A program made the position numbers and the translations under genes. Shown piece by piece: positions 32,315 to 47,415 of a stretch of 64,000 nt of DNA (within the stretch, counting starts at the first letter, position 1; every line of letters begins with the position of its first letter). This DNA is from Saccharopolyspora galaxeae (GTDB taxonomy: Bacteria; Actinomycetota; Actinomycetes; Mycobacteriales; Pseudonocardiaceae). The stretch lies in contig NZ_JADDUE010000014.1 in the NCBI RefSeq assembly GCF_016526145.1, positions 1 to 64,000 on the forward strand, read 5' to 3'. Below the pieces are notes generated by a model, which did no database searches, had not been told where the DNA came from, and saw nothing but the letters and a program-made list of their open reading frames with translations.

Positions 32315-32899
32315 TCAGGGAAGTCCGGTCTCGCCCACGTGCGAGATACCTTGATCACCCTGGCGCGTCTGTACGTCGCGCAAAAGGTCACGCAGGAGTT
32401 CGGCCAACTGCTCACGCCGCCCGGATTCGATGCCATCGAGAAGTTCGGCCTCACGGCTAAGAACCAGGTCGACGGTCCGCTCGACGAGCGCGTGGCCAGC
32501 GCGAGTCAGCTCCACCCAGACGCTCCGATCAACGGGATCCGTCCATCGCACCACCAGACCCTCGCGTTCGGCCCGGGCCACCCGTTGTGAGATCGCACCC
32601 GCCGTGACCAACGTCAACTCGGTCAATTCCCTGGTAGTACGCCTGTAGGGCGATGAGCTGCGGCGCAGCACGCTGAGCAGATCCAGCGTTGCGGAGTCGA
32701 CCCCTGCATCGGACAGGACCCGTCGGCGGTCATCGCCGAACAACTTGGCCAGTTGCCACACCCGAGTCACCACCCCTATCGACGCAGTGCGTGTACCTGG
32801 CCGCTCCCGCTCCCAAGAAGCTGCGATCTCATCTGCAGCATCCGAGACGTCCCTTTGATCGGGCGCCTGTTCGGTACCGTCTGCGTTATCCCTTGTCAC
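32315..32899 (-). CDS. MarR-family transcriptional regulator
   Basis: A 194-residue regulator with the MarR winged-helix core: LDLLSVLRRSSSP, then RELTELTLVTAGAISQRVAR (recognition helix), then the wing GLVVRWTDPVDRSVWVELT. The N-terminus has an extra 40 polar residues. GTG 32899 has GGAG five bases upstream. It diverges from the first reductase gene and very likely controls the cluster by binding the TTTAnnnnTAAA site between them (32950-32961). MarR proteins usually release DNA on binding a small phenolic ligand, which would fit an aromatic product or precursor. Confidence 0.82.
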   Translation of the reverse strand: MTRDNADGTEQAPDQRDVSDAADEIAASWERERPGTRTASIGVVTRVWQLAKLFGDDRRRVLSDAGVDSATLDLLSVLRRSSSPYRRTTRELTELTLVTAGAISQRVARAEREGLVVRWTDPVDRSVWVELTRAGHALVERTVDLVLSREAELLDGIESGRREQLAELLRDLLRDVQTRQGDQGISHVGETGLP

Positions 32900-32933
32900 T
32901 CTCCGCTACCTCCCGCAGCAATGCTCCGGCAAA

Positions 32934-32961
32934 TATAATACGCTACTACTTTATCCCTAAA
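32934..32961 (+). promoter_or_regulatory. Promoter and operator of the reductase genes
   Basis: A perfect TATAAT (32934-32939) is followed after ten bases by the palindrome TTTATCCCTAAA (32950-32961), which would overlap the transcription start. The same TTTAnnnnTAAA pattern recurs at 33877 and 47489. The location is right for repression by the adjacent MarR protein. No good -35 is visible. Confidence 0.55.
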
Positions 32962-32981
32962 CACCAGAAGGGTCTTCCGCA

Positions 32982-33782
32982 ATGACACCCTCATCGGTTC
33001 GGATCAGCAACGATCGTCACTCGACGCGCCGAGGTATCATCATCACCGGCGGGAGTAAAGGATTGGGGTATGCGGTAGCCAAACGACTGGCTCGACAGCG
33101 GGATGCGCTGGCGCTTTGCGGCAGGGATACGGGTCGGCTGCGCAGCGCGGCCGCTGAGTTGCGCCATGAATCATGCGCCGAGGTCCACACCGAAGCCCTG
33201 GATGTCGTTGATGGCGACCTCGAAGGTTTCATCGAACGGGCAGCCAATGCGTTGGGACGGGTCGACGGTTTAGTGCTGTGCGCTGGGGGCGCAAGTGGCG
33301 GCGGATTGGCGGAGTCCACATCGCGAGACTGGCAACGGACCTACGAGCTCAATGTGGGCCACCCTGCACGGGCCCTCCGAACGTGCTTACCGCACCTGAG
33401 CGCATCGCGCGGCTCTGCACTACTGATCTCGTCCATCTCGGGTTGGAAGCCGGCTCCGCCCGCCCAGTACGCGGCGGCCAAGGCAGCCCAATTGAGCCTC
33501 GCCGCCTCGTGGGCACGCGAGCTGGGCCCACAAGGCGTGCGGGTCAACGCTCTCTCGCCAGGTTCGATGTGCATTCCGGGCGGCACATGGGATCGGCTAC
33601 GACTCAACGATCCCGCCGCTTACGAAACCTTCCAGCGAGAATTTCCTGGAAAAGAGCTCCCCGGCCCTGATGAAATAGCCGATGTGGCATGTTTCCTCCT
33701 CTCCGAGGAAGCAGCCGCTATCAGCGGAACAAATATCCCGGCCGATCGAGCCCAAAATGCGCCAACCGCTTTCGGATACTGA
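32982..33782 (+). CDS. Short-chain dehydrogenase/reductase
   Basis: A 266-residue NAD(P)-dependent oxidoreductase. The Rossmann glycine motif is TGGSKGLGYAVA (about 22-33), followed by LCAGGA. The catalytic Ser lies in LISSISGWKP and the YxxxK pair in YAAAK. The C-terminus SGTNIPADRAQNAP is typical of the family. Substrate unknown; presumably reduces a keto group of the cluster product. AAGGG precedes ATG 32982 weakly. A 123-base gap with its own promoter separates it from the second reductase. Confidence 0.82.
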   Translation: MTPSSVRISNDRHSTRRGIIITGGSKGLGYAVAKRLARQRDALALCGRDTGRLRSAAAELRHESCAEVHTEALDVVDGDLEGFIERAANALGRVDGLVLCAGGASGGGLAESTSRDWQRTYELNVGHPARALRTCLPHLSASRGSALLISSISGWKPAPPAQYAAAKAAQLSLAASWARELGPQGVRVNALSPGSMCIPGGTWDRLRLNDPAAYETFQREFPGKELPGPDEIADVACFLLSEEAAAISGTNIPADRAQNAPTAFGY

Positions 33783-33846
33783 AGGCCCCGTTGCCTACAA
33801 GACCGAACATCGACCAGTACGACTAGGTTCCCTTCCGCCGACTTGC

Positions 33847-33888
33847 TTGCGAACAGCGCTCCATCACGGTACTATATTTAGACCTAAA
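33847..33888 (+). promoter_or_regulatory. Promoter and operator of the second reductase gene
   Basis: TTGCGA (33847-33852) and TACTAT (33870-33875), spaced 17 bases, make a plausible sigma-70-type promoter. The palindrome TTTAGACCTAAA (33877-33888) begins one base after the -10. It matches the pattern at 32950 and 47489 and would place a repressor on the start site. AAAGGAG for the gene follows. Confidence 0.6.
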
Positions 33889-33905
33889 CATGAAAGGAGT
33901 GCTTC

Positions 33906-34631
33906 ATGAGCAGGACTGTGCTCGTGACCGGCGGTGGCAGCGGTTTCGGCCGTGCCATCGCCGCTCGGTTCGCCCAGGATTCCGACCGGGTCTTCATCAC
34001 GGGGCGACGAGTCGACGTGTTGGAGCGGGCAGCCGGTGAACTCGGTAGCAGCACCCATGCGCTTCCGTGTGACGGGACCGACCCGGCCGCGGTCGAGAAT
34101 GCAGTGGCGGGCATCGACGGTGCAGTGGACGTCTTGGTCAACAACGCGGGCGGGAACACCGACTTCAACATGCCCACCGGAGGCGGGCTAAAAGGAAGCC
34201 TGGACCGCTGGCGGGCCAACATCGATGCGAACGTCATCACCGCGGCCCTCATGACCGAGGCATGTGACGACAAACTGGCGCACGGCGGCGCATTGGTCCA
34301 CATCGGATCCATCGGCGCCGACCAGGGCGGCGGCTCCTACGGCGCGGCTAAAGCAGCGTTGGCATCCTACAACATCGGGCTGGCCAAGCAGTTCGGCCCG
34401 CGCGAGATCACGTCCAACGTGGTGGCACCCGGCTATTTTCCGGACACCGAGTTCTTCGGCAACGGACTACCCCAAAGCGTCCACGACCACTTGCTCTCGT
34501 TGACCAACCTGGGTCGGCACGGTTACCCCGAAGAGATCGCCGAGGCCGTGCACTTCCTCGCCTCGCCCAACGCACGCTTCATCACCGGTCAGGTCATCAA
34601 CGTCAACGGGGGCGCCAGCACAACCCGCTGA
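33906..34631 (+). CDS. Short-chain dehydrogenase/reductase (FabG-like)
   Basis: A 241-residue oxidoreductase. Cofactor motif TGGGSGFGRAIA (about 8-19), VNNAGG, catalytic Ser in IGSIGADQGGG, and YGAAK. The end, ITGQVINVNGGAS, is characteristic of FabG-like enzymes. A strong AAAGGAG precedes ATG 33906. FabG relatives act on carrier-bound or CoA-bound beta-keto substrates, which would fit the free-standing carrier protein in this cluster. It ends before a terminator shared with the opposing operon. Confidence 0.82.
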   Translation: MSRTVLVTGGGSGFGRAIAARFAQDSDRVFITGRRVDVLERAAGELGSSTHALPCDGTDPAAVENAVAGIDGAVDVLVNNAGGNTDFNMPTGGGLKGSLDRWRANIDANVITAALMTEACDDKLAHGGALVHIGSIGADQGGGSYGAAKAALASYNIGLAKQFGPREITSNVVAPGYFPDTEFFGNGLPQSVHDHLLSLTNLGRHGYPEEIAEAVHFLASPNARFITGQVINVNGGASTTR

Positions 34632-34720
34632 TTACCATTTCCGGAAGCTGGAACAGGCCCCGAGCCGCGACCGCTGCCGCCGGGATTCCGATTCCACTCC
34701 CGATCGAACCGGCAACCACC

Positions 34721-34760
34721 GGCGGAGCCTTGCTTAGTATTAAACAAGCAAGGCTCCGCC
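34721..34760. terminator. Bidirectional terminator between the two cluster operons
   Basis: A perfect 15-bp stem (GGCGGAGCCTTGCTT and complement) with a ten-base AT-rich loop. It sits between the convergent second reductase and asparagine-synthetase-like genes, so the stem can stop transcription from both sides. Confidence 0.85.
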
Positions 34761-34820
34761 CGTTCAGTTTCGATGTCGACACAACCGTATGATTCGACTA
34801 TTCCACATCGAGTGCATTTG

Positions 34821-36634
34821 CTACTGCAACCATTGATCGAGCATCAGCGTGGTCTCGAACGGGTTGCGGCTCAGTTGTGAATTGAAGCTCCCCAGCGGCT
34901 GCTTTAACAGCTCTTGGATTCCTGCACGATCGACGATATCAAGCGCAGGAGACTCGCCCTGATGCAGCACCCGCCGCACCCTGTCGCGCAGATCCCACTC
35001 ATACGTCAGATTTCCAGTGGTCGGGTAAGGACTTTTTTTCGGTTTAGCACCGACTCCGGAAGTAGATCGGAAACTGCGCCGCGGAGTACGCTCTTTTCTT
35101 TTCCGTCGAAACATTTCATCTTCCACGGAATATTGTAGACGTACTGCACCAACCGGTGATCACAAAAGGGGACACGCACTTCTAGACCCGAAGCCATGCT
35201 CAGTCTATCTTTGCGGTCCAGCAGGATCTGGAGCCATCGGGTCAGATGGAGATGACTTAGCTCGCGCATACGCTGCTCGCCCGCGTCTTCTGTGTCAATA
35301 CGGGCAACCTCGGACACGGCGGACCGGTAGGCATCCGAAACGTATTCGTCGAACCGCGTCTGCCGCCGAAACTGACAGGTCAACAAACTCGGCGGAATGA
35401 GCTGCATACGGCTGAGCCATGGGAACTCGGCCCCTGCGACAACTGTCGGGTCATGGAACCATCCGTAACCGCCGAACACTTCATCGGCCGACTCCCCGGA
35501 AAGCGCAACCGTGGAATGCTCCCGAATCCGCGAGAACAGCAGGTACAGTGAACTGTCCACGTCACCGAATGTCAGCGGCAGATCATGCGCATCGAGCACC
35601 GCGCGAGGCGCCTTGTCACTAAGCAGCGACTCCGACGCCAACTCGATCGTGCGATGATCTGTTCCGATGTGCTCGGCCGCCAGGACCGCATACGGATTAT
35701 CACGCTCAGGCCGAAATTCGGTGCTCTGGAAGTCGCGAGCACTGCCCGCGAAGTCCACCGAGAACGAGCTCACCTGGCCTTTCCCATTGGCGGCGAGCTC
35801 GTTTGCCGCGATGGCGGTCAACGCACTGGAATCGAGCCCGCCGGATAGCAGAGTGCACAGCGGCACGTCTGTAATCAATTGCCTCTGAACGATGTCCTCG
35901 AGCAAGTCCCGGACGTGTCCAACTGTCTCGGGAATACCGTCGGCGTGCGGCTCGCTCTCAAGACGCCAGTAGCGGTGCAGACGGCTACCGGTGCGCCCTA
36001 CCGCCAAGAAACAACCAGGAGGCACCTCGTACAAGTTGCGTAGTGGCGTCTTGCCGGGCGTCTTGGCCAGGGCCAGCAGGTCGGCGAGCCCCTCGTAGTC
36101 GACGACTTTGGAGAAGTCCGGGTGCGCCAGTAGAGCCTTGGGTTCGGAGCCGAACAGCACACCACCCGCCAACTCAGAATAGTAGAGCGGCTTGATTCCC
36201 AATCGGTCGCGGACCAGCAGCAGCCGCTGCTCGCGCGCGTCCCAGAGAGCAAACGCGAACATCCCGTTGAGCCGATCGACGAGACCCGTGCCCCATTCCT
36301 GGTAGGCGGCGAGCACGACTTCGGTGTCGCTGTGCGTGTGGAAGTAATGACCTCGGTGGTACAGCTCGTGTCGTAACTCCTTGAAGTTGTACACCTCGCC
36401 GCTGTAGGAGAGCACCGCGTGCGGGTCGGCTTCCGATCCAGCCAGCATCGGCTGGTTGCCTCTCTTGACGTCGATAATCGCCAGCCGTCGGTGTCCGAGG
36501 CCGGCGTGCGCGTCTAGCCAGTGGCCGCCCGCGTCCGGCCCCCGAGCGTCCATCGCCGCGGTCATCAATTCCAATGATTCTCGGTCGGATCCCCTGGGTC
36601 GCTGGAAATCGACCCAGCCGACGATACCGCACAT
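34821..36634 (-). CDS. asnB: Asparagine-synthetase-like amidotransferase with a frame break at an A7 run
   Basis: Glutamine-dependent amide synthetase (AsnB family): N-terminal Ntn glutaminase with Cys2 (MCGIVGWVD) and RGPDAGGHW, then the ATP-pyrophosphatase domain with LLSGGLDSSALT. The first frame runs from 36634 to a stop at 35006 (542 residues, ending NRKKVLTRPLEI). The expected C-terminal part (KKSPYPTTGNLTYEWDLRD, then LDQWLQ) continues in the -1 frame to 34821. The switch falls at CGA AAA AAA GTC on the minus strand (about 35031-35038). A -1 slip there restores a protein of about 604 residues, the usual AsnB length. It could be programmed frameshifting, a sequencing error in a homopolymer, or a real mutation. 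Last gene of the ten-gene operon. Confidence 0.8.
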
Positions 36635-36691: not shown

Positions 36692-38272
36692 CTATAGCTT
36701 TCCTTCGGCGAGAACGGTGGCCAAACGCTCGAGATCAGCCGACATGAACCGGTCCGCGGTCAGCGTTCGAACGTGCTCGCGGATCTGATTATGAGTTCGC
36801 TTGCCCACCGGGCTCAGATAAAAGCTCCGATCGCCGGCGTCCACGGCCTGCGCCGCCGCCAATGCCTCTACTGCAAGAATGCGGTCATTGTTCCGCAGGA
36901 CGCGACGGGCGTTGCGGGCGGCGATCAGGCCCATACTCACGACATCCTGGTTATCCCCGTTCGCAGGGATGCTCTGTGTACTGGCGGGTCCTATGGTACG
37001 ATTCTCCGCGACCAGGGCGGTGGCAGGGTATTGACTACCGGCCAGGCCGTTAGAAAGGCCTGGCTCACCAGCCACCAGGAATCCGGGCAAGCCGCCGTTG
37101 AGGTGGCGATTGAGCAACCGATTGGTCCGGCGCTCGGAGAGCACGCCGAGTTGGGTCAGTGCGAGGGTAGCGTAGTCCATCGCCAAGGCGACCGGTTGAC
37201 CGTGGAAGTTCGCCCCGTGGAAAACCTCACCACCGTCGAAGATCAACGGGTTGTCGTTGGCCGAATTCAGCTCGGTTCGCACCACCTGCTCCGCGTGGCC
37301 TAGGGCATCGCGCACCGCACCGAGCACCTGCGGTGTTGCCCGTAGCGAATAGGCCTGTTGCAGAAGCACGTCGGTATGGTGGACTCCACTTGAACTGCTT
37401 TGTTCCTCGGCTTGTCGCAGAGCTTGCGCTTGGAGCTGGGCGTCGCTCCGGAGCAGCTTGCCACCGGTTGTGAACTCCCGCAGATTCGCGGCCGAGGTGA
37501 TCTGGCCTGGGTGCGGCCTAGCCAACTCGTGCCCCTCCTCGGCAAGGGGACTGGACGACGTCTCCAGTGCCTCAAGCGCCAGCGCGGCGATGGTCTCGGC
37601 TTGTCGTACCTGCTCCAGCGCTCGGCACACGATAAGTGCGCCAAGCCCCGTCATCGCCGACGTCCCGTTAATCAGGGCGAGCCCTTCCTTGAACCGCAGC
37701 CGTAACGGCTCGATTCCGCGTTCGCGGAGGACGTGTGCCGTTTCGATAGGTCCGTTGGTGCCAAGGACGAAGCCTTCGCCGATCATGGTGGAGGCGACAT
37801 GTGCCAACGGGGTCAAATCGCCGCTGGCACCGAGGGATCCGACCTCCGGGATCGCAGGGGTGATGCGCGTGTTGAGGTAGCATTCCATTCGCTGGATCAA
37901 CTCCGGACGCACCGCCGAGTAGCCACGCACGAGGGCGTTAAGCCGCGCACACAGAATCGCTCTGCCCTCTGCCGCCGAGAACAGCGTCCCCATACCGCAG
38001 CTATGACTTCGCACCAGGTTTGTCTGCAGTTCGGTCTCATTGGCTGCGTCCACGACGAAGTTGACCATTTCGCCGAAGCCGGTGGTGACACCATAGACCG
38101 GAGCTCGACGTCGGATCAATTCTTCGAGCTGTTCCCGATTTCTGGTCACGCGTTCGAGTGCGGCCCCAGGGATCTCGCATGGAGCGTCTTCCTCGGCGAC
38201 CTTGCGCACATCGTCGAGGCACACCGTTTCTCCGTCGAGCGGGATCGGCGCGCGTGCAGCAGCGACGCTCAT
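36692..38272 (-). CDS. MIO-dependent aromatic amino acid lyase/2,3-aminomutase (tyrosine aminomutase-like)
   Basis: A 526-residue enzyme of the histidine/phenylalanine ammonia-lyase superfamily. The cofactor-forming triad A149-S150-G151 lies in GSLGASGDLTP, and catalytic Tyr60 in VYGVTTGFGEM. QQAYSLRATPQVLG and NSANDNPL are conserved. The selectivity position reads LVRSHS (S89-H90), the Ser-His pair of histidine lyases and of the enediyne tyrosine 2,3-aminomutase SgcC4, not the Phe-Leu of PAL. The overall text also resembles SgcC4. So beta-tyrosine is the likeliest product, with 4-coumarate or a histidine product as alternatives. The start overlaps the transporter stop by ATGA. Confidence 0.82.
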   Translation of the reverse strand: MSVAAARAPIPLDGETVCLDDVRKVAEEDAPCEIPGAALERVTRNREQLEELIRRRAPVYGVTTGFGEMVNFVVDAANETELQTNLVRSHSCGMGTLFSAAEGRAILCARLNALVRGYSAVRPELIQRMECYLNTRITPAIPEVGSLGASGDLTPLAHVASTMIGEGFVLGTNGPIETAHVLRERGIEPLRLRFKEGLALINGTSAMTGLGALIVCRALEQVRQAETIAALALEALETSSSPLAEEGHELARPHPGQITSAANLREFTTGGKLLRSDAQLQAQALRQAEEQSSSSGVHHTDVLLQQAYSLRATPQVLGAVRDALGHAEQVVRTELNSANDNPLIFDGGEVFHGANFHGQPVALAMDYATLALTQLGVLSERRTNRLLNRHLNGGLPGFLVAGEPGLSNGLAGSQYPATALVAENRTIGPASTQSIPANGDNQDVVSMGLIAARNARRVLRNNDRILAVEALAAAQAVDAGDRSFYLSPVGKRTHNQIREHVRTLTADRFMSADLERLATVLAEGKL

Positions 38273-39768
38273 CAGCGCATCTCCAGGACCCGCTCGTTGG
38301 TCCCGGCCTCAGGTGTGTTCAGGCGACGCCCCAACACTCTGCTGAGGACCGCGGTCGCCAGTGCTAAGAGGCCGAGCAGGACACACGTAATCGCGAACGA
38401 GTTCGCATAGGCGCTGTTAGGGATGGCGCCCGCAGCCTGCTGCGGATTGGCCCCCAGCACGCCGCGATACAGGGTGCCTACCGCCGCGATGCCTAACGCC
38501 ATAGCCGCCTGCGTCATCGTGTTGATCACTCCGGAGGCGGCGCCTGCAAGTGAGTCGGGTACCTGCGCCATGGTCAAGTTGATCAGCGGAGAAACGACCA
38601 GTCCCTGACCGATGCCGGAGACTCCTATGGCCGCTGCCAACAGCACGGCTTGAGTTCCGCTGCCAGCCTGGACGATGAACGGAACCGGGGCATAGCTCGC
38701 AGCCATCAACAATGCACCAGTGACCAGGACTCGGCTGCCATAGCGCTCAGCAAGGCCGCGTCCGAACACCGACGCCATCGCGAACCCTAATCCCATCGGT
38801 ACGAATACCAGTCCCGTACCTAATGGCCCCAGCCCAAGGCCGGACTGCAGGTGGTAGGTCAACACCAGAAAGCAACCGGAATTGCCGCAGAAGAACACGG
38901 TGATAGCGGCCATGCTGGTCGGAAACCCAGGCCGACCCAATAGTTTTGGCGGTAGCAGTGGATCTCCTCCCCGCGCAGCCAACCATCGCTGATGTCGGAA
39001 CAACAGAGCAGTGAGGACAGCGGCGGTGGCAAAGAATACCCATACCCAGAGTGGCCAACCGTGCTCAGCACCGAGGAACAGCGGCACCAACAATGCAGGG
39101 AGCACCGTCGCGGTGAGCACCGTGCCGACGGTATCCAATGGAGCAGTCGTCGGACTCCGGCTCTCTCTAATCGTCGCCGGAGCCACCGCCAACATGACCA
39201 GCCCCACGGGAACGTTGATCAAAAATATCGTCCGCCACTCGAGTCCAAGAATGTTCCAGTGCAACAACAGGCCGCCACCGATCAAGCCTGCGACCACACC
39301 CAGTCCGATTACCGCGCCGTAGAGACCCACGGCCCGCTGCTGGTCACGGGAGTCACCGAAGGTACCGTAGATGAGCGACAGCACCTGCGGCATGAGTACG
39401 GCGGCGGCCGCGCCCTGCAAAGCTCGCGCCGCGATCAGCAAGCTGGCCGTCGGAGCCAGCGCGCACAGCAACGACGTCAGCGTGAACGCGGCAACACCGT
39501 ACTGGAAAACTCTCTTCCGACCGAGCCTGTCGCCAAGTTTGCCACAGGTCACCATGCCGGCCGCGTAGAGGATCACGTATCCGTCAATAATAAATTGCAT
39601 TTGACCGAATGAAGCACCCAGGCTTTTCTGGATCGGCGGGCTCGCCACGTTAACAATGAACATGTCGATCTGCCCCATGAAAATAGCTAGCAACGCTACT
39701 CCGACACCGATCCAGTCACGGGTACTGGACGCCCGAGCAGGCGAACTTTTCATTATAGATGTTGCCAC
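38272..39768 (-). CDS. MFS drug exporter, DHA2 (EmrB/QacA) family
   Basis: A 498-residue transporter with about 14 hydrophobic segments, as expected for DHA2 proteins. The loop 2-3 motif GKLGDRLGRKRVFQYG matches motif A (GxLaDrxGrkxx). A proton-antiport segment follows with LQGAAAAVLMPQVLSL. It probably exports the cluster product and protects the host. Encoded between DAHP synthase and the MIO enzyme within the operon, with 15 bases to the gene before it. Confidence 0.85.
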   Translation of the reverse strand: MATSIMKSSPARASSTRDWIGVGVALLAIFMGQIDMFIVNVASPPIQKSLGASFGQMQFIIDGYVILYAAGMVTCGKLGDRLGRKRVFQYGVAAFTLTSLLCALAPTASLLIAARALQGAAAAVLMPQVLSLIYGTFGDSRDQQRAVGLYGAVIGLGVVAGLIGGGLLLHWNILGLEWRTIFLINVPVGLVMLAVAPATIRESRSPTTAPLDTVGTVLTATVLPALLVPLFLGAEHGWPLWVWVFFATAAVLTALLFRHQRWLAARGGDPLLPPKLLGRPGFPTSMAAITVFFCGNSGCFLVLTYHLQSGLGLGPLGTGLVFVPMGLGFAMASVFGRGLAERYGSRVLVTGALLMAASYAPVPFIVQAGSGTQAVLLAAAIGVSGIGQGLVVSPLINLTMAQVPDSLAGAASGVINTMTQAAMALGIAAVGTLYRGVLGANPQQAAGAIPNSAYANSFAITCVLLGLLALATAVLSRVLGRRLNTPEAGTNERVLEMR

Positions 39769-39783: not shown

Positions 39784-41016
39784 CTAAGAACCTATGAGGT
39801 CGACGGCGCGGGATACAACCCGCTCAGCTTGCGAATAATTTAGGCGGGGGTCACAAGCGGATTTGAACAAACCTGCGGGTTGCGGCGAAGCGAGTTCCGC
39901 CTTGATTTCGACGCATTCAGAAACATCGTCGGGAGTAGTCTCCAGGTGCAGACCCCCTGGCCAACACCCGCGCGCCCGCAGTACTTCGAAAAACTGCTCG
40001 ACCTCCGCTACGACATCGGTCATCACCCGCGTTTTCCGCCCGTCCCCGGCGCGCACGGTATTGCCGTGCATCGGGTCACAGAGCCACACCACCTCCCGCG
40101 CCAGGGGGCCCAACGCGTCAATGAGCGCAGGTAACCGTTCGTAGAGTCGGCCAGCGCCCATACGCACGATCATGGATACCCGGCCCGGCCTTCGTCCGGC
40201 CGTCAATCGTTCGGCGATGGCGACGACGTCCGCCGGTTCCGCAGCAGGCCCTAGCTTGACTCCAACCGGATTGCTGATTCCTTCCGCGAACTCCACGTGC
40301 GCATGGTCGACCTGCCGTGTTCTTTCCCCGATCCACAGTAGGTGGGCGGAAGACGCATAATTTCCCCCCTTAACGTGATCAGGCCGGACCAGGGCGCTCT
40401 CGAACTCAAGAAGCAGGGCCTCGTGACTGACGTAGGTAGGCGCGAGCATAGACCGCAGGCCGCTGTTGCTTTCGGAAATCAGCAACTGGCGCATGAAGAG
40501 CGCTTCCAACGCGCTCGATGCGTGGTCGTAAGCTGCGAGCAGTCGCGTCGGGTCCGGGCGCCGGGAAAGGGCAGTGGCTTCCCGAGCGTTGACGGCATCG
40601 CCCAGGTAGGTCGTAAGCACGGTCCCATCCACCAGCGTCTCGGTCGACTGCGACCGGGGTTTCGCGTACTGCCCGGCCAAACGGCCTACGCGGATCGCTG
40701 GCATTCCCGCACCTTCCACGATATCGGCGAGCCGATGCACCTGCGTGGCTTTTTCGCGAATGCGGTCGGGGGCGGCGTCGTCGAAGATTTCAGCGCACTC
40801 ACCGGCTTGAATGACGACCGCCTCACCCCGCGCGACGAACTCCAATTCACCGGCTAGCGCATGAACCGACTCCGCAGAAACCAACGGCGGCCTCTTCAGC
40901 AGTTTATCGAAAACATTGACAAGGACGTCCGAATCCTCCCAACTGACCTGGTGGGCAGCTTTGACGGCTACCGGCTGGGAATCTTTCAAGGGTCTACCCG
41001 GTCCTATTGAAGGCAT
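39784..41016 (-). CDS. Class II 3-deoxy-D-arabino-heptulosonate 7-phosphate (DAHP) synthase
   Basis: A 410-residue enzyme condensing phosphoenolpyruvate and erythrose 4-phosphate, the first step of the shikimate pathway. Metal and substrate motifs of the plant/PhzC class are present: QAGECAE, RVGRLAGQYAKPRS, GVKLGP, CDPMHGNT, GGLHLETTPDDVSEC and CDPRLN. It is shorter than housekeeping class II enzymes (about 460 residues), mainly at the N-terminus, as in secondary-metabolism copies that escape feedback control. In this cluster it would raise aromatic amino acid supply for the MIO enzyme. Confidence 0.88.
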   Translation of the reverse strand: MPSIGPGRPLKDSQPVAVKAAHQVSWEDSDVLVNVFDKLLKRPPLVSAESVHALAGELEFVARGEAVVIQAGECAEIFDDAAPDRIREKATQVHRLADIVEGAGMPAIRVGRLAGQYAKPRSQSTETLVDGTVLTTYLGDAVNAREATALSRRPDPTRLLAAYDHASSALEALFMRQLLISESNSGLRSMLAPTYVSHEALLLEFESALVRPDHVKGGNYASSAHLLWIGERTRQVDHAHVEFAEGISNPVGVKLGPAAEPADVVAIAERLTAGRRPGRVSMIVRMGAGRLYERLPALIDALGPLAREVVWLCDPMHGNTVRAGDGRKTRVMTDVVAEVEQFFEVLRARGCWPGGLHLETTPDDVSECVEIKAELASPQPAGLFKSACDPRLNYSQAERVVSRAVDLIGS

Positions 41017-41040
41017 TAGGTAAGTCTGCCCTTCAGGTGT

Positions 41041-42507
41041 CTACATTGGATGCATCTCGAGTTCGCCCGCGGACTGCTCGACCCGCCGGGCGAGGTGAAT
41101 GAGCCGTTCCTCACTACCGCGCGGACCTACCAGCTGCACCCCCAACGGCGCCCCGTTAATTCGGCTCCGCTGTGCTGGAACTGTGATTGCTGGGAGACCC
41201 GCGAAGCTGGCGATCGGCGTGTACCCGATTCTTCGGTCGTAGTCGGGCTCACCCGGCATCGGGATCGTGCTCAGCGACGAACTGTGCACTCGGATGTCCG
41301 GCGGTGCCGATGGATCCAGCGGCAGTAGCCAGGCGTCGAGGTCGTCCCCAAACATTGCGGGAGCCTCTCGCCGACTAGACACCATATTTTCCAGAATCTC
41401 AGCATAACGCTCGTCATCTACCTTCGCGCCGACGTCCAAGGCACGGTGCGTGCTGTCGAGCAATGGCACTGTGATCCAGCGTCGCCAGAGCTGGTATCCG
41501 TCCCTTGCCTGGCGCGCGCAGAGTTGCCAGGCATCTCCCCGAAATCGCCAAAGATCGCCCAGGCGGACCTCGTCGACCACGTGGCCGTCATCGGCCAACC
41601 AATCACTTACCTTATCCACGGTCTCCAACATTTCAGAGGAGGCACACCCGTGGCGGATGTTATCCACTACTCCTACTCGATAACGTCGCCGTTCCCATTC
41701 CACCCCGCTCGAGGAACGATTTTCCTCCGAGACCAGCGAGCCGAGCCCGAGCCGCCTCCAAAGCAGCGCGAGATCGGCAGCACTGCGTGCCACCAATCCG
41801 ATCGCATCCATCGGAGGCGAGAGCGGGAAGACGCCATCGAGCAGGTCGGGGGCGTGGCTCATCCGCAAGCCAACGGTGCCGCACTGGCCAGCAGGCCAGC
41901 GCACTGATCCCAGTACATCAGTCCCGACAGCCAGATCACAAAGACCCGCCGCTACGGCGACGCCCGCCCCCGTGCTGGAACCCGCCGGGTCGATGTGCGG
42001 AAAGCAAGGATTGACGCAACCCGATCCGACACCAATGTTCAGCTCGGTGCTCACCAATTTAGCGATCACCGAAGCTGTACCCCCGTCACCCTGCTCGATC
42101 GATTCGATGGCAGGTGCAGATGCTTTTGGATGATGCCGGTACCACCGCAGTCCGAGGCCGGTGGGAAAATCCGCCACGTCGATGGTGTCCTTCACACCGA
42201 CACGCACCGCTGGAGTAGCTGACCGCCGGGCCACGATGGGTCGGTAACGGGCATCGGCCGCAAGCGTCCACTCCTCGCATTGCTCTGCCCACGCGTCGTC
42301 GTCCCAGTCGCCCACGTCGATTTGGTTAAATCGTTGTTCCAACGACGTCCGCACCAGCGGCGGGGGTTGCAGCAATTCGTCCGGGTAACTGAGGCCGGCG
42401 CGACGCGCGTAAGAAGCGACAGCTCGGTCGGGGCGCTGATTCGCTTGCACCTCCGAATTTTCGTTTCCTATCGACCAGATCGGGCTTTCGGTTGCACGAG
42501 ATCTCAT
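41041..42507 (-). CDS. Amidase signature family enzyme
   Basis: A 488-residue hydrolase. The Ser-cisSer-Lys triad is visible: Lys in VGVKDTIDV (about 105) and the serine region DPAGSSTGAGVAVAAG followed by GTDVLGSVRWPA (nucleophile Ser of GSVR). C-terminal ITVPAQRSRINGAPLGVQLV is typical. The enzyme could hydrolyse an amide in a biosynthetic intermediate, or form one in reverse, possibly linked to the amide-forming AsnB-like protein. ATG 42507 overlaps the ligase stop; the ORF start at 42534 would overlap more and lacks support. Confidence 0.82.
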   Translation of the reverse strand: MRSRATESPIWSIGNENSEVQANQRPDRAVASYARRAGLSYPDELLQPPPLVRTSLEQRFNQIDVGDWDDDAWAEQCEEWTLAADARYRPIVARRSATPAVRVGVKDTIDVADFPTGLGLRWYRHHPKASAPAIESIEQGDGGTASVIAKLVSTELNIGVGSGCVNPCFPHIDPAGSSTGAGVAVAAGLCDLAVGTDVLGSVRWPAGQCGTVGLRMSHAPDLLDGVFPLSPPMDAIGLVARSAADLALLWRRLGLGSLVSEENRSSSGVEWERRRYRVGVVDNIRHGCASSEMLETVDKVSDWLADDGHVVDEVRLGDLWRFRGDAWQLCARQARDGYQLWRRWITVPLLDSTHRALDVGAKVDDERYAEILENMVSSRREAPAMFGDDLDAWLLPLDPSAPPDIRVHSSSLSTIPMPGEPDYDRRIGYTPIASFAGLPAITVPAQRSRINGAPLGVQLVGPRGSEERLIHLARRVEQSAGELEMHPM

Positions 42508-43562
42508 CCGCAGGATCCCCCCATATCCGCGCACGGTTCGATGTTCGCGTACAGTTGAGTTACCGGTACTTTTCCTGTCGACGTCTTCGGGATACGGCAG
42601 ACCCGGTGCACAGCGCGCGGCGGGACTACGTCTTCTAGCACACTGCGGATCGCCTGCAAGATCTGTCCTGCACTAAGGGTTCGCTCGCACCGATAAAATA
42701 TCTCGTAATGCTCGCCGCGTACCGAATCATGCACCGGTACGCAGACGGCATCGGTACCCGGAACTGCTTCCCGTAACGCGTCGGCAATGTCGGACAATTC
42801 GCACCGAAGCCCGTTGATCTTCACCAGATCGGTACCGCGCCCACCAAAATCGAATGAGCGCTCACCTTTGCGAGTGACCACATCGGACAACTGCCACTCC
42901 GCTGGGGGATCCGTCATGTCGGAGCGTCGAGCCAGCCGAGGACTCCGAACTGACAACCACTCGCCTTCCGGATACCTTTCCTGCTCGGAAACGCACTCGG
43001 CGAACTCGACGTCGGAGAGCAACGTCCACGGCCCTCGGCTGCCGCGGTGCGGCGGTATTCTGCGATGAGCGATACCACCGGTCTCAGTGGACCCGAACAG
43101 CTCCACTGCACGAAACTGGGTATCGGCTAGGGCGGAGACGACCTCGTCGGTTGCGTCCACCGTCGGCCCCGTTCCGTGCAGCGCCATCGAGGCTGGCAGC
43201 TCGCGGAGCTGGGATAATGACCTCCGCAAAACCACCCAACTCGATGGAAGACACGCGAAGAGCGTGCGCTTTCGCATCGCAGAGCCCGGCAGTGCGGTCG
43301 GCTCGTGTCCAACGTTCAGCACGTCGACCGCCAAACGGTCCGGCAGCAACTCTCCCGTCAACCGTCCGAACAGATGGTCGGTCGGAGCGAAGTTCACGAC
43401 CTGGTCAACCTCTCCGACAAGTTCCCTCGCAAGAACATCGGCTTCCGCACGCAACTGCCACTCAGTACGCCACCAAACGACTGGGGTATTCGCGCTCCCT
43501 GAAGTGCGGAAGGGAATCTCCCCGATGGTTTCTGAAATGACACCTGCCGTTGTTTCGGTCAT
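42504..43562 (-). CDS. Short AMP-dependent ligase-like protein
   Basis: A 352-residue member of the acyl/aryl-AMP ligase superfamily that begins at the phosphate loop: FRTSGSANTPVVW at about residue 18 in place of SGSTG. Later motifs are ordinary: ELFGSTETGGIA, GRGTDLVKINGLRCEL (hinge) and a C-terminal Lys in KTSTGKVPV. About 150 residues usually found before the loop are missing, and several core motifs look relaxed. It directly follows the carrier protein gene (ATGA overlap), suggesting it loads that carrier, alone or with the PaaK-like ligase. Confidence 0.75.
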   Translation of the reverse strand: MTETTAGVISETIGEIPFRTSGSANTPVVWWRTEWQLRAEADVLARELVGEVDQVVNFAPTDHLFGRLTGELLPDRLAVDVLNVGHEPTALPGSAMRKRTLFACLPSSWVVLRRSLSQLRELPASMALHGTGPTVDATDEVVSALADTQFRAVELFGSTETGGIAHRRIPPHRGSRGPWTLLSDVEFAECVSEQERYPEGEWLSVRSPRLARRSDMTDPPAEWQLSDVVTRKGERSFDFGGRGTDLVKINGLRCELSDIADALREAVPGTDAVCVPVHDSVRGEHYEIFYRCERTLSAGQILQAIRSVLEDVVPPRAVHRVCRIPKTSTGKVPVTQLYANIEPCADMGGSCG

Positions 43563-43861
43563 CGGATAGTCCCTAAAGCAGCCATGTCTTCCCGACGGTT
43601 CCGCACGAACCGCGCCATATTGTCGATCGTGGAAAAGGCATATCGGATATCGTCGGCCACAAAATCGACCTCGATGCCGAACTGTTTCTCCACCTCAGTG
43701 ATGCACTCGAGCGCACCGAGGCTGTCGTAACGGTCGCCGAGCGTGTCGCGCAACTCCGAATCGGCGGCCACGTCACGAGCTTCGTCGCCGAACAGGCCCG
43801 TGAGTACGCCACGGATCTGCGTTTGAATGTGGTCGAGATCGACAGGTTCCATCCCGCTCAT
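43559..43861 (-). CDS. Free-standing acyl/peptidyl carrier protein
   Basis: A 100-residue acidic four-helix protein. The phosphopantetheine serine lies in YDSLGALECITEVEKQF (about residue 61), the canonical DSLxxxE pattern. GIEVDF and IDNMARFV fill the later helices. It would tether a biosynthetic intermediate. ATG 43861 follows GAGGGGAAAG; the stop overlaps the short ligase start. A perfect inverted repeat lies just upstream (43899-43917). No phosphopantetheinyl transferase is in the window. Confidence 0.85.
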   Translation of the reverse strand: MSGMEPVDLDHIQTQIRGVLTGLFGDEARDVAADSELRDTLGDRYDSLGALECITEVEKQFGIEVDFVADDIRYAFSTIDNMARFVRNRREDMAALGTIR

Positions 43862-43898
43862 ACTTTCCCCTCGCACAAAGTGTGGACATATCCAGATC

Positions 43899-43917
43899 AA
43901 CCACTTTACGAGTGGTT
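43899..43917. repeat. Inverted repeat upstream of the carrier protein gene
   Basis: AACCACT-TTACG-AGTGGTT, a perfect 7-bp inverted repeat with a five-base loop in the 71-base gap between tautomerase and carrier protein. It could be an mRNA hairpin tuning expression inside the operon or a binding site. It is too short for a confident terminator and has no T-run. Confidence 0.5.
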
Positions 43918-43932
43918 GCTCGTTGAGCTGAC

Positions 43933-44331
43933 TTAGTCTCCCGTTTCCGCCGCGCTACGCAGCTGGCCCGCGACACCGAAGCGCACGTCACCCCGCGAAG
44001 TCGGACGAAATTCGATGTAGAGCAACGCAGTGCTTTCGGTCATACCGAGTGCTTGCGCGATCTCACGAGCCAGTTCATCGCGAAACTGTTCGTCCCAGCC
44101 TTCGGCGATGCAACACAGAACGCTCGCGTAGTGCAACGCTTCACCAGAATCGGGTAGTGCTTCCACGGGCATCCCGCCGACAAAAACACTGCCTTCGTCG
44201 GTTTCTTCGAATCGAACAACGACATGCCGGCGATCACTGCCCCGCCGGTACAGCCAGCGAGTGAGCCGTACCGACACTTCCCTGCGGCGTGGCGCACTCA
44301 TCGCCGGTGTATTGATCACGATTGTCGGCAT
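43933..44331 (-). CDS. Tautomerase-superfamily protein (4-oxalocrotonate tautomerase-like)
   Basis: A 132-residue protein starting MPTIVINTPAMS, so that removal of Met leaves the catalytic N-terminal proline of this superfamily. HVVVRFEETDEGSVFVGG fits the first beta-alpha-beta unit. The second half (WDEQFRDELAREIAQALGM, then ALLYIEFRP) resembles another unit without its own proline, so it is a fused double-unit form. It would shift a keto-enol or enamine double bond. ATG 44331 follows GAGGAG; the ORF start at 44556 runs into the toroid gene. Confidence 0.7.
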   Translation of the reverse strand: MPTIVINTPAMSAPRRREVSVRLTRWLYRRGSDRRHVVVRFEETDEGSVFVGGMPVEALPDSGEALHYASVLCCIAEGWDEQFRDELAREIAQALGMTESTALLYIEFRPTSRGDVRFGVAGQLRSAAETGD

Positions 44332-44344
44332 TCCGCGCGTCTCC

Positions 44345-46105
44345 TCAGGAAAGCGTGAGCGCCGGAAGGCACTGCAAGTGTCCAGTGAACCGACGATCCA
44401 AGAGTTCGGCGAGGCAGTCAGCCAGAGGTCCCCCACCAGCGGGCGCGAGTGGGGTCCACGCGGTCCCTTCCTGCGTACGCACGCGCCCGAGAAAACCTTC
44501 GAGCTGGGCAGCCTCGATGACGATGCCGTAGGCATCGGCCGTCGCCACTGCCTCATAGCTGCTCAACAGGTCCGGCATGCGGTTTCCCTCATTGGCGAAC
44601 CCACCGCTGCGCACTCGGTGCCGCTCCAGGAGCGCGACGACCCCCTCGAACGATCCTCGTCCGAGATAGCGCAGCACGCGGTGAGCCTGCAACCCGGCGC
44701 GCAAGGTCGGCGCGGCTCCAGGAACATTGCCGTACCCCGATGCCGGGCTGTCGCCACATGTCACGACGAATCCGGCAAGGCGCCCGACGTCGAGCACATC
44801 GGCAACGGGGACATCTAGGACCTCTAGAATCCCCACGGCGGAGGATGTCGAGACCAAGTCCGAACCGCGGCCTTCCCAGTATCCGAAACCGCCGTCAGGG
44901 TTTTGCAGTGCTCGCAGCCATGTCGCTATGCTGCGGCAAACCTCCTCGTCGTTCCGGCACGCTCCCGCCGCCAGTGCCCACAGCGTGCAACGAACCTCAC
45001 TACCCCGCGCCGGCATGTACATCACGCCGCCCTCATTCGGCAGTCGGCAGCCCGCGAGCCACCGGCGCCAGCTCTCCAATCGCGAATCGTCATCGGGTGC
45101 GGTCAATGCCGCGGCGGCCGTGCTCAGTGCGTCTCCCGCCTCAGTAGGCTCTCGGTAGGTGAAGCCACCTCCAGGACACGAAAGCTCGCGTACCCTGCTG
45201 ACAACCGCTTCCGAGTGGGCGGCCGTGTCAGCTTGCAATGCGTCTAAGGAACCGATGGCGCAGAACGATGCCCACACGTCAGCGACGTCGTATCCCGACC
45301 ACCGTACGAAAGCCCCGGATGGCAGGCGCAATGATTTGATCCACTCGATGCAAGCGATGGCTTCAGCGGGCTCAACCCCCAACGCGTGGAGCGTGGCAGT
45401 CGCTCGGTAGGTCGCCCACATACACGGGACCTCGGCACTGGTGCCGAAACGAAATCCGCCCTCCGCACATTGTTGCTCACGAAGCCACTTCACGAGCGCA
45501 GGGGCGTCCCATGGCAAAGGAAGATCACGGTGGACCGAGGCCAGGGCACGCCACGTCATGACACCGTAAAAGCAGGCACGCACGTCAGAAGTGCTGTCGT
45601 TCGTTCGGTAGGCGTCCTCGGCGTGCTCGGGCGACCAAGTCAGCCCACCGTCGGGTGCTTGTAGCTTCCGCAACCAGCTCACCAATGCCCTGGCGTCAGG
45701 GACGTCATCACCGCAGAGTTCAATCACGGTGCGGGTCGAAAAGTGCGTGGCCCACGCATCCGGCGCTTGTCCTGGAACCATCGCATAGGCGACACCGGAC
45801 CACGTACTGCGGAGCCATTGCGCGGTGCGTTCCAGCCTAGGCACTTTACCTCGAATATCGGCTAACGCGTGCGTGCAGTAGAATGTGGCCCATGCATCTG
45901 AAGCCATGCCCTTGCTCCATGCATAACCGCCATCGGCGTTCTGCCGACCGCTGAGCTGGGCGATGGTTTTCTCGAGTTGCGGAACGTCGGATATTCGGTT
46001 GAGCCAGGACAGCGTCCGGACCGCAGCATAAGTGCACCAGAGATCAGGTTCCCCCATGGCGACCCCGGTACCGGTGGGCGCAACAGCAACTCCAGTTGTG
46101 CTCAT
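44345..46105 (-). CDS. Alpha-toroid protein, prenyltransferase-beta/squalene-oxidase repeat family
   Basis: A 586-residue protein built from about eleven double-helix repeats. Each carries a core like SDAWATFYCTHALADI, PDAWATHFSTRTVIEL, DVWASFCAIGSLDAL or SDLVSTSSAVGILEVL, alternating with glycine turns (NADGGYAW, APDGGLTW, AEGGFRF, NPDGGFGY). One repeat, TSDVRACFYGVMTW, matches the DxR-x2-Y segment of protein prenyltransferase beta subunits. No DxDD motif of class II terpene cyclases is visible, so chemistry is open: cyclase, prenyl or acyl transfer, or a scaffold. ATG 46105 overlaps the upstream ligase stop; the 46144 ORF start is not used. Confidence 0.7.
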   Translation of the reverse strand: MSTTGVAVAPTGTGVAMGEPDLWCTYAAVRTLSWLNRISDVPQLEKTIAQLSGRQNADGGYAWSKGMASDAWATFYCTHALADIRGKVPRLERTAQWLRSTWSGVAYAMVPGQAPDAWATHFSTRTVIELCGDDVPDARALVSWLRKLQAPDGGLTWSPEHAEDAYRTNDSTSDVRACFYGVMTWRALASVHRDLPLPWDAPALVKWLREQQCAEGGFRFGTSAEVPCMWATYRATATLHALGVEPAEAIACIEWIKSLRLPSGAFVRWSGYDVADVWASFCAIGSLDALQADTAAHSEAVVSRVRELSCPGGGFTYREPTEAGDALSTAAAALTAPDDDSRLESWRRWLAGCRLPNEGGVMYMPARGSEVRCTLWALAAGACRNDEEVCRSIATWLRALQNPDGGFGYWEGRGSDLVSTSSAVGILEVLDVPVADVLDVGRLAGFVVTCGDSPASGYGNVPGAAPTLRAGLQAHRVLRYLGRGSFEGVVALLERHRVRSGGFANEGNRMPDLLSSYEAVATADAYGIVIEAAQLEGFLGRVRTQEGTAWTPLAPAGGGPLADCLAELLDRRFTGHLQCLPALTLS

Positions 46106-47415
46106 GACGTAGACTCCAACACGCGGAAATTGGATCGCTTCCAATTTTTCTGGGAAGCGCCGCTTTTTGTCGTAGCGGGCAGCTGGTTGACGAAGACTAC
46201 CTCATCCCACTGCAGCCCCAGATTGTCCTGCGATAATGCTTGGAGCCGCGCCGTCATATCCGTTTCGCTGTCCCGATCCCAGTTCACATCGCGCTCCAAT
46301 ATCAGCCGAGCGAACTGACCAGCTGAATCAGCTTCCATCAAGTATCCGGTGGATTCAGTAGCGCCAAAGACGACTTCCTCGACAGCGCGGACCGTCAGAT
46401 TAGCGTTACGGACCTGCAGCGCATCGGAGCTACGTCCTACGACCTGCACGACCGGAGCTTCATCCCCACATTCGCAAGCTGAGCTGATCTTGACATCGTC
46501 GCCCGTGTCCAATCGCAACAAAGATCGGGCATGCAAGTTGAGGGGCGTAACGACCAATCGTCCCGCACCGGAGTCGGACAGTGGAGCCGCTCCGTCGTCA
46601 GTGGCCAACTCGAAGTAGTTCGTCGCTGTCAGCAAGTGCAGTTGATCATTGGCACAGCTAGTCGCCAGGGTACCGGTCTCGGTACTGCCGTAGCTGGCGT
46701 CGAAAGCACTCGCGTCCCACCATTGCCCAAGGCGCGCGCGGAACGGCGGGGTACTCACCTCACCAAGCAGCATCATCTTCGTGACAGACGCTCCGTACCG
46801 CTCGAGCAGCCCTCGTTCTTTGAGTAAACGGCTTAACTGCAGCGCGACGCCGGGGGCGATGAAAACCGTAGAAGGCTGCAAGGTTTCCCATAGACCAATA
46901 AGCCTGTCCCAGTCCGATATACCAGTAGTGAACGGGTAGCAACGCGCGTGCGGAAGATCGAGGTATTCGCAAACTCCGACGATCATGTCCGCGACAGGAA
47001 CGATGTCCGAAGGCATCATAACGAGCACACGTTCGTTTTTCCCTAAGAGATTGCGCCACGATTCAGCAACAGATACAGTGTTCCATATAATGTCTTCTGC
47101 TGTTCTCGGCGTTGGCGTCGGTTGCCCCGTCGTGCCAGTCGTTTCGTAGTATTTTACCTCCCTCCTTGCTGCTCCTGCGAGAAACTCTCCCGGAGTCGCT
47201 TTCAGGCGATCTTTTGGCGTCCTCGACAGCCCTGCAAACGCCTCCCAAGAAAACTCACCTAACGAGCGATAGGATTCAGTTTTCTGCGCTCGACACCACA
47301 CGGTCCGAAGTTTTTCTTGATAGAATGAAGAATCCGGGATACCACCCCGACTGCCGGAGATCTCCTTACTAGCGGAACGCAGTTCGTCCATACGTTCTGG
47401 ACAATTTATCAGCAT
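46102..47415 (-). CDS. PaaK-like acyl/aryl-CoA ligase
   Basis: A 437-residue adenylate-forming enzyme. The ATP loop is YYETTGTTGQPTPTP (about 92-106), the adenine motif SYGSTETGTLA, and the hinge region LRLDTGDDVKI. A C-terminal lysine-rich end follows (TTKSGASQKNWKRSNF). This pattern is closest to phenylacetate-CoA ligase-like enzymes. It probably activates an aromatic or amino acid for CoA or the carrier protein. ATG 47415 was chosen: it puts the TTTAnnnnTAAA operator upstream, whereas the ORF start at 47520 would bury it in coding sequence. First gene of the minus-strand operon. Confidence 0.78.
   Translation of the reverse strand: MLINCPERMDELRSASKEISGSRGGIPDSSFYQEKLRTVWCRAQKTESYRSLGEFSWEAFAGLSRTPKDRLKATPGEFLAGAARREVKYYETTGTTGQPTPTPRTAEDIIWNTVSVAESWRNLLGKNERVLVMMPSDIVPVADMIVGVCEYLDLPHARCYPFTTGISDWDRLIGLWETLQPSTVFIAPGVALQLSRLLKERGLLERYGASVTKMMLLGEVSTPPFRARLGQWWDASAFDASYGSTETGTLATSCANDQLHLLTATNYFELATDDGAAPLSDSGAGRLVVTPLNLHARSLLRLDTGDDVKISSACECGDEAPVVQVVGRSSDALQVRNANLTVRAVEEVVFGATESTGYLMEADSAGQFARLILERDVNWDRDSETDMTARLQALSQDNLGLQWDEVVFVNQLPATTKSGASQKNWKRSNFRVLESTS

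What the first reader, a model, noticed from the sequence alone, without database searches (positions are those of the whole stretch)
32315..47415. PKS/NRPS-free biosynthetic cluster carried by an ICE, built around a tyrosine aminomutase-like enzyme
Thirteen genes form one coherent set: MarR regulator, two SDRs, AsnB-like enzyme, MIO aminomutase/lyase, exporter, class II DAHP synthase, amidase, two AMP-ligase-type proteins, a carrier protein, a tautomerase and an alpha-toroid protein. I know of no described pathway with this combination. It lies between the integrase and the tRNA attachment site and looks more AT-rich than either neighbour (by eye), so it reads as horizontally acquired cargo. 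An amide-containing beta-aryl amino acid product is a reasonable guess.
Basis: partly seen in the sequence, partly recalled or inferred. Interest (0 to 1): 0.9.

Follow-up and report, generated by a model that had tools for sequence, protein, structure and literature searches.

The report
Orphan small-molecule gene cluster on ICE
A mobile element in an actinobacterium carries an uncharacterised set of small-molecule genes whose conserved heart is a five-gene unit also found in other actinobacteria and on Rhizobium plasmids, and that unit may process a tyrosine-derived cinnamic-acid building block in a way not yet described.

Summary
All 13 genes lie at 32315-47415, between an integrase and a tRNA-Pro attachment site, at 61.3% G+C against 69.8% (ICE part of the window) and 71.2% (chromosome). 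It reads as acquired cargo: the toroid gene is missing from five of five other genomes of the genus, and two related ICEs hold a type I-E CRISPR-Cas system in the same slot. Twelve of the 13 genes recur together in five other genomes. Across 36 distinct loci the constant part is PaaK-like ligase, alpha-toroid, Pro-1 tautomerase, carrier protein and a minimal ligase ("LigC"), in one order in 29 of 29 loci holding all five. The aminomutase is replaced by other MIO enzymes or lacking (full length in 17 of 29). The 22 LigC proteins scanned all match the 4-coumarate ligase model, the window's far below cut-off. I therefore favour a carrier-bound 4-hydroxycinnamoyl intermediate over a beta-amino acid, with an amide added by AsnB or ATP-grasp. 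Here AsnB is split between two frames. Substrates and product are unknown. The toroid lacks the DxDD motif of class II terpene cyclases; its reaction is the real novelty.

The parts
32315..32899 (-). MarR-family regulator
   Evidence: PF12802 1.6e-7; orthologues 69-77% in L023, L024, L034, L051, L090
32982..33782 (+). SDR1, short-chain dehydrogenase; like the SDR of seven Streptomyces clusters (54-62%), no orthologue in the five TAM-type clusters
33906..34631 (+). SDR2, short-chain dehydrogenase; like the SDR of the five TAM-type clusters (60-62%)
34821..36634 (-). AsnB-like glutamine-dependent amidotransferase (Cys-2 and SGGLDS present), split: one frame 36634-35006, C-terminal part in another frame from 35039 down
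   Evidence: TIGR01536 504 bits, cut-off 267; frame change; motifs
36692..38272 (-). Tyrosine 2,3-aminomutase (MIO enzyme)
   Evidence: TIGR03832 775 bits, cut-off 501; best PDB match tyrosine aminomutase 2rjr 2.7e-198; GASGDL, NLVRSH
38272..39768 (-). MFS transporter, presumed exporter
   Evidence: PF07690 7.4e-44
39784..41016 (-). Class II DAHP synthase, short form (410 aa)
   Evidence: PF01474 2.7e-124; TIGR01358 393 bits, below cut-off 614.7
41041..42534 (-). Amidase-signature enzyme (motifs taken for the Lys-Ser-Ser triad; their role is recalled)
   Evidence: PF01425 5.6e-45; motifs
42504..43562 (-). LigC: minimal AMP-ligase starting at the P-loop; core gene 5
   Evidence: TIGR02372 4-coumarate-CoA ligase 66.2 bits, 2.1e-18, cut-off 334.7; the model is matched by 22 of 22 members of A4; alignment
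43559..43876 (-). Carrier protein with DSL serine; core gene 4 (exact start uncertain)
   Evidence: PF00550 6e-6; DSL; family
43933..44331 (-). Tautomerase-superfamily protein with Pro-1, tandem 4-OT fold by prediction; core gene 3
   Evidence: Met-Pro-Thr invariant in 25 of 25 of A5; model pLDDT 90, best PDB match fused 4-OT 7puo 1.2e-7
44345..46105 (-). Alpha-toroid protein without DxDD motif; core gene 2
   Evidence: PF00432 1.1e-34; model pLDDT 91; Foldseek drimenyl-PP synthase, Rab GGTase beta, squalene-hopene cyclase; no DxDD
46102..47415 (-). PaaK-like AMP-ligase; core gene 1
   Evidence: NF045666 71.9 and BagE/FevW model 69.8 bits, both below cut-off; PDB AjiA1 6wuq 1.1e-26
30878..32089 (+). 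ICE tyrosine integrase
   Evidence: PF00589 2.6e-9; 78-79% in G001 and G004
30485..30778 (+). HTH_17 protein, excisionase-like by position
   Evidence: PF12728 2.2e-8
18292..27261 (-). ICE conjugation genes: Replic_Relax, HerA/coupling-type ATPase, VirB4/TraC-type ATPase, PrgI, T4SS pilin
48482..48556 (-). tRNA-Pro(ggg), attR; its 3' 44 bp are repeated at G000:C6:93973-94016 (attL)

Best explanation
The cluster is ICE cargo that makes an exported small molecule through a carrier-bound 4-hydroxycinnamoyl intermediate. Inferred order: DAHP synthase raises the supply of tyrosine; the MIO enzyme turns tyrosine into 4-coumarate (here a TAM, which may also give beta-tyrosine); LigC adenylates the aryl acid and loads the carrier protein; the Pro-1 tautomerase and the alpha-toroid protein change the thioester (conjugate addition, isomerisation or cyclisation); the PaaK-like ligase activates a second acid or drives coupling; the SDRs reduce; AsnB (ATP-grasp in sister clusters) makes an amide; the amidase matures or detoxifies it; the MFS protein exports it. 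Shown: gene content, linkage, the conserved core, motifs, folds by prediction, signs of mobility. Inferred: every substrate and every reaction.
For: Core in identical order and strand in 29 of 29 loci holding all five, with distance matrices that run together (Mantel r to Toroid 0.93-0.96 for the other four, none of 999 permutations as high). The 4-coumarate-CoA ligase model is the only family matched by all 22 LigC proteins of A4. Three MIO types serve the same core: TAM; a type best matched by the bagremycin/ferroverdin TAL model (L050, L055, below cut-off); and a short type over no cut-off (L035, L041), the L035 one 55-56% alike to MIO enzymes that stand next to LigC relatives in L027, L028 and L030, loci with EryCIII-like glycosyltransferases. 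A TAM works through 4-coumarate (recalled), so 4-coumarate is the one product all could share. PaaK-like protein nearest to aryl-acid ligases. Tautomerase Pro-1 invariant in 25 of 25. AsnB in 13 and ATP-grasp in 8 of 29 core loci, never both; amidase in 19 of those 21 against 2 of the other 8. The Rhizobium versions show no MIO and no DAHP synthase in the fetched stretch, as would fit use of plant hydroxycinnamates (inference).
Against: The window LigC scores 66 bits against a cut-off of 335, so its substrate is a lead only. 12 of 29 core loci have no full MIO gene and 5 of 29 no DAHP synthase within the fetched flank. The window MIO clears the aminomutase cut-off, as does L090's, which favours beta-tyrosine for this subgroup. 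MIO and MFS follow the core less closely (Mantel r 0.77 each). Split AsnB may mean that its step is dead in this strain. In the Rhizobium loci ACP and tautomerase are only weakly like the window's (31-32% and 21%; L060's tautomerase is found only through L061's). No product, no assay. Fisher and Mantel figures are not corrected for shared ancestry.
Confidence: 0.45

Rival explanations
1. Beta-tyrosine pathway: TAM gives beta-tyrosine, which a ligase loads on the carrier protein; the product is a beta-tyrosine amide. The core then handles beta-amino acids.
For: MIO enzyme clears TIGR03832 (775 against 501 bits) and L090's does too (851 bits); the three best PDB matches are labelled tyrosine aminomutase (the next two are labelled histidine ammonia-lyase); the TAM-like type is in all six clusters of this subgroup (window, L023, L024, L034, L051, L090).
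Against: The same core goes with other MIO types or with none found; LigC matches a 4-coumarate ligase model in 22 of 22.
Confidence: 0.3
2. The toroid is a prenyl-handling enzyme (terpene cyclase or prenyltransferase) and the product is a meroterpenoid.
For: PF00432 1.1e-34; fold matches to drimenyl-PP synthase, squalene-hopene cyclase, Rab GGTase beta, the last with TM-scores up to 0.72 by target length.
Against: No DxDD motif in the four toroids scanned for it; no isoprenoid gene among the 13; TM-scores of the 50 listed matches only 0.29-0.47 by query length.
Confidence: 0.07
3. In this strain the cluster is a decaying relic on an ICE and makes nothing.
For: AsnB is split between two frames. 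Two of my ad-hoc motif patterns (a serine motif in SDR1, a lysine pair in PaaK) found nothing.
Against: Orthologues of the other 12 genes match in one frame each; the remaining patterns tried on AsnB, TAM, amidase, LigC, PaaK, ACP and SDRs were found; the genome is a 34-contig draft, so the shift may be a sequencing error.
Confidence: 0.12

Closest known systems
Bagremycin/ferroverdin biosynthesis (BagA, BagE)
   Same: Tyrosine lyase plus PaaK-like synthetase; the window's PaaK-like protein matches the BagE/FevW model and the MIO enzymes of L050 and L055 match the BagA model best
   Different: All these matches are below cut-off; no toroid, tautomerase, LigC or carrier protein known to me there (recall)
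Saccharomicin aglycone genes sam8/sam7
   Same: TAL and an acyl-CoA-synthetase-like protein thought to activate a hydroxycinnamate for an amide (passages of PMC3469384 and PMC8234114); MIO-LigC pairs stand in L027, L028 and L030 with EryCIII-like glycosyltransferases
   Different: No toroid, tautomerase or carrier-protein core found with those pairs; their link to saccharomicin is inference
Tyrosine aminomutases of known structure (2rjr, 2ohy, 2qve)
   Same: MIO enzyme of the window is a member of TIGR03832 by its cut-off
   Different: The solved ones are known to me from enediyne clusters with NRPS partners (recall); here no NRPS, and sister clusters use other MIO enzymes
PaaK-like ligase AjiA1 (6wuq)
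   Same: Nearest solved relative of the PaaK-like ligase, 1.1e-26
   Different: Aligned over residues 60-354 only; its role in benzoxazole formation is recalled
Class II terpene cyclases / protein prenyltransferase beta subunits
   Same: Alpha-toroid fold
   Different: No DxDD, no prenyl partner genes; in 29 of 36 loci part of the ligase/carrier-protein core
Actinobacterial T4SS-type ICEs at tRNA genes
   Same: Integrase, HTH protein, VirB4-type ATPase, PrgI, pilin, Replic_Relax, tRNA att
   Different: Cargo slot holds this cluster; two relatives hold CRISPR-Cas I-E there

Membership tests
Tyrosine 2,3-aminomutase (TIGR03832) | Score over curated cut-off | tested here: met
   775.3 against 501 bits
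Tyrosine 2,3-aminomutase (TIGR03832) | MIO-forming Ala-Ser-Gly | tested here: met
   GASGDL at residue 148
Tyrosine 2,3-aminomutase (TIGR03832) | Mutase rather than lyase activity | not testable with these tools
   Needs an assay
4-coumarate ligase (TIGR02372) | Score over curated cut-off | tested here: not met
   66.2 against 334.7 bits; works-like claim only
Class II terpene cyclase | DxDD catalytic motif | tested here: not met
   Absent in window, L061, L091, L093, the four scanned
Tautomerase superfamily | Pro-1 after Met removal | tested here: met
   Met-Pro-Thr in 25 of 25 of A5
Tautomerase superfamily | Beta-alpha-beta repeat fold | tested here: met
   Predicted model pLDDT 90; 7puo, cis-CaaD, Cg10062
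Bagremycin/ferroverdin synthetase BagE | Score over cut-off 800 | tested here: not met
   69.8 bits
Glutamine-dependent asparagine synthase (TIGR01536) | Score over cut-off, Cys-2, ATP-site SGGLDS | tested here: met
   504 against 267 bits; MCG and SGGLDS
Glutamine-dependent asparagine synthase (TIGR01536) | Intact open reading frame | tested here: not met
   Frame changes near 35035; draft-sequence error not excluded
NRPS/PKS cluster | Condensation or ketosynthase domain | tested here: not met
   None among the 13 genes at E 0.001
ICE | Integrase, conjugation genes and flanking att repeats | tested here: met
   the two att copies lie on two contigs joined by synteny only
ICE | Excision and transfer | not testable with these tools
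   Needs an experiment
Any MIBiG entry | Same gene block | not testable with these tools
   MIBiG not held; nine literature searches aimed at the pathway gave no match

The most novel reading that the evidence does not exclude
PaaK-Toroid-Taut-ACP-LigC is an unnamed biosynthetic core, seen in actinobacterial genomes, on one ICE and on Rhizobium plasmids, in which an alpha-toroid protein, a scaffold known from terpene cyclases and protein prenyltransferases, together with a Pro-1 tautomerase acts on a carrier-protein-bound aryl acrylate; this would be a new class of thioester-dependent cyclase or coupling enzyme, with a swappable front end (three MIO types or none) and a swappable amide-forming end (AsnB or ATP-grasp).
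Probability: 0.35. Interest if true: 0.85.

Novelty: new variant of a known kind. Interest (0 to 1): 0.62.

Why it matters
If right, it gives a five-gene signature for a family of small-molecule clusters that tools built on NRPS/PKS domains may miss, and puts an alpha-toroid enzyme on a non-terpenoid, carrier-bound substrate. It also shows an ICE cargo slot that holds a biosynthetic cluster in one host and a CRISPR-Cas system in two relatives.

Tried and rejected
LigC alone as query in genome contigs gave no relative; the toroid alignment A1 gave 26 loci there and none in viral contigs. LigC in 150 relatives matched 119 at E <= 0.001, most of them partial matches to unrelated ANL enzymes; only the strongest ten or so were followed. 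PaaK in plasmids gave 113 records; with the toroid as query at E <= 1e-20 only three, all Rhizobium rhizogenes. A terpenoid product was considered and set aside (no DxDD, no isoprenoid gene). A beta-lactam-synthetase role for AsnB was set aside because Cys-2 is present (that the synthetases lack it is recalled). Of the ten paper searches nine were aimed at the pathway and one at saccharomicin; the papers they listed, such as PMC8773403, were seen only as listings, except passages of PMC3469384 and PMC8234114. A second structural look by VIA-align was not available.

The 7 others: L044, L052 and L054 break off at contig ends; L058 has toroid, PaaK-like gene and a tautomerase on the other strand but no ACP or LigC match; L092 and L093 have the toroid alone beside NRPS genes; L094 has no LigC match. 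The queries were taken partly from L035, L040, L041, L043, L048, L055, L061 and L091, which therefore match by construction. With window proteins alone as queries 28 of the 29 show all five; in L060 the tautomerase is seen only through L061's. In L057 and L059 the PaaK or toroid match is broken into pieces (coverage 34-65%). For L053 an amidase match covering 15% was counted as present. Absence means absence from the fetched flank.
Full report
Observation. G+C is 61.3% in the cluster, 69.8% in window 1-32089 and 71.2% in the chromosome to the right. Two details change: the tautomerase begins at 44331, and AsnB is split between two frames near 35035. Orthologues of the other 12 genes match in one frame each.

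Mobile element. tRNA-Pro lies at 48482-48556. Its 3' 44 bp recur at G000:C6:93973-94016, inside a 70-bp exact repeat; ARAGORN finds no tRNA at that copy. Window 117-32045 aligns with ICEs at the same tRNA-Pro in G004 and G001 in blocks of 67-78% nucleotide identity, and the end of contig C6 aligns directly next to the start of the window, so the ICE very likely runs from C6:93973 to the contig end and on to C5:48525, about 73 kb. In G004 the stretch between integrase and att (L081 about 6.5-17 kb) holds Cas3, Cse1, CT1975-type Cas7 and Cas1 by Pfam (four of its eight ORFs were scanned), and a 10.8-kb block of it is 88% identical in G001. A toroid search found nothing in 5 of 5 other genomes of the genus, G150 of the same species included; the same query rang in G000 and 15 others of the family, which serves as its control. 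In G150 about 8 kb lies between the two att copies; no stretch of 100 bp or more of it matches the window, though about 230 bp next to the att copy match the start of the ICE on C6. So this cluster reads as recent cargo.

The cluster family. A toroid alignment found 26 loci in genome contigs: 16 Streptomyces, two Amycolatopsis, one each of Actinophytocola, Actinokineospora, Lentzea, Kutzneria and Micromonospora, two Nocardia, and one labelled a Melainabacteria bin with a 3-kb contig (L054), which I would not trust. Within 390 genomes of the window's family 16 match at E <= 1e-60, the window's own among them (three candidates per genome were scored in the rows shown). The family is Pseudonocardiaceae by inference: G069's contig has the same length, 196961, as that of Actinophytocola xinjiangensis (L041). 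Three Rhizobium rhizogenes plasmid records (K84, C5.7 and NZ_MK318971) carry PaaK and toroid at 39-40%; in the two looked at these are followed by two small proteins and an AMP-binding protein. Direct likeness of those small proteins to the window's is weak: ACP 31-32%, tautomerase 21% in L061 and not found in L060, LigC 26-27%, but L061's small protein begins Met-Pro-Thr and L060's is 90% like it.

Counts. Of 36 distinct loci 29 hold PaaK, Toroid, Taut, ACP and LigC, in the same order and on one strand in 29 of 29; AsnB 13, ATP-grasp 8, both 0, amidase 21, DAHP synthase 24, full MIO 17 and one partial (how the queries were chosen is told under Tried and rejected). Amidase goes with an amide-forming enzyme (19 of 21 against 2 of 8, Fisher p = 0.0014, not corrected for ancestry). 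Pairwise distances of the core proteins run together (Mantel r to Toroid: PaaK 0.95 on 28 loci, Taut 0.95, ACP 0.93 and LigC 0.96 on 29; AsnB 0.98 on 13, amidase 0.95 on 20, DAHP synthase 0.92 on 20, MIO 0.77 on 17, MFS 0.77 on 27). These too reflect shared ancestry in part.

The window cluster is nearest to L090 and the Amycolatopsis clusters (all but SDR1) but also holds SDR1, whose closest relatives (54-62%) are in seven Streptomyces clusters that lack an SDR2 orthologue. It joins both SDR types.

Enzymes. TAM is a member of its family by score. LigC starts at the P-loop TSGS and keeps later ANL motifs; all 22 members of A4 match the 4-coumarate-CoA ligase model, the only family that all match; the window's is below cut-off and the best E-value, 1.9e-24, implies the same for the rest. 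The PaaK-like protein is nearest to AjiA1 in the PDB. The carrier protein has its serine. The tautomerase has Met-Pro-Thr in 25 of 25 and a 4-OT-like predicted fold. The toroid model is confident (pLDDT 91); 61 residues are invariant in 34 toroids, and no DxDD motif was found in the four scanned for it. Fold matches are to terpene cyclases and prenyltransferases, TM-score 0.29-0.47 by query length and up to 0.72 by target length.

Mechanism. The MIO enzyme occurs as TAM, as a type whose best model is the bagremycin/ferroverdin TAL (L050 672 and L055 618 bits, below cut-off 1000), and as a short type with no family over cut-off (L035, L041). With LigC matching a 4-coumarate ligase, the simplest common intermediate is a 4-hydroxycinnamoyl thioester. 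That is inference. MarR regulators that sense hydroxycinnamates are known to me from recall only. Beta-tyrosine remains the main rival for this subgroup.

Known systems. Saccharomicin genes sam8/sam7 (passages seen in PMC3469384 and PMC8234114) show a similar lyase-ligase pair; loci L027, L028 and L030 have a MIO-LigC pair and EryCIII-like glycosyltransferases, but their link to saccharomicin is a guess. No paper describing the core was found in searches. Absence from this open library, under such narrow queries, is weak evidence.

Noticed in passing
L081 6500-17300 (G004) and the matching stretch of G001 (L088-L089): Sister ICEs at the same tRNA-Pro carry a type I-E CRISPR-Cas system, with a tandem array of about 61 bp period between it and the integrase, in the slot where the window has its biosynthetic cluster.
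   Followed up: partly
window 117-32045 against 48286-49940: The ICE body lies inverted relative to the tRNA-Pro when compared with G004 and G001; no explanation found.
   Followed up: no
L032 9846-15689 (G000:C6, left arm of the same ICE): Lantibiotic dehydratase, LanC-like protein and a PCMT-type methyltransferase with a small possible precursor ORF: a class I lanthipeptide-type cluster on the same ICE.
   Followed up: partly
window 35006-35126: AsnB changes frame near its 3' end; real or draft error.
   Followed up: partly
L092 9479-11197 and L093 9024-10742: The toroid also occurs without the other core genes; in L093 it stands beside a C-A-T NRPS, a thioesterase/acyl-CoA-dehydrogenase fusion and a P450, and L092 has the same gene starts.
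   Followed up: partly
L074 9173-17396 (G150): tRNA-Pro looks like an integration hotspot in the genus: several 44-bp att copies; the same-species genome has a different, about 8-kb insertion there.
   Followed up: no
L060, L061: The core on Rhizobium rhizogenes plasmids (pAtK84c and pC5.7c) beside GNAT, amidase, MFS and ATP-grasp genes.
   Followed up: partly
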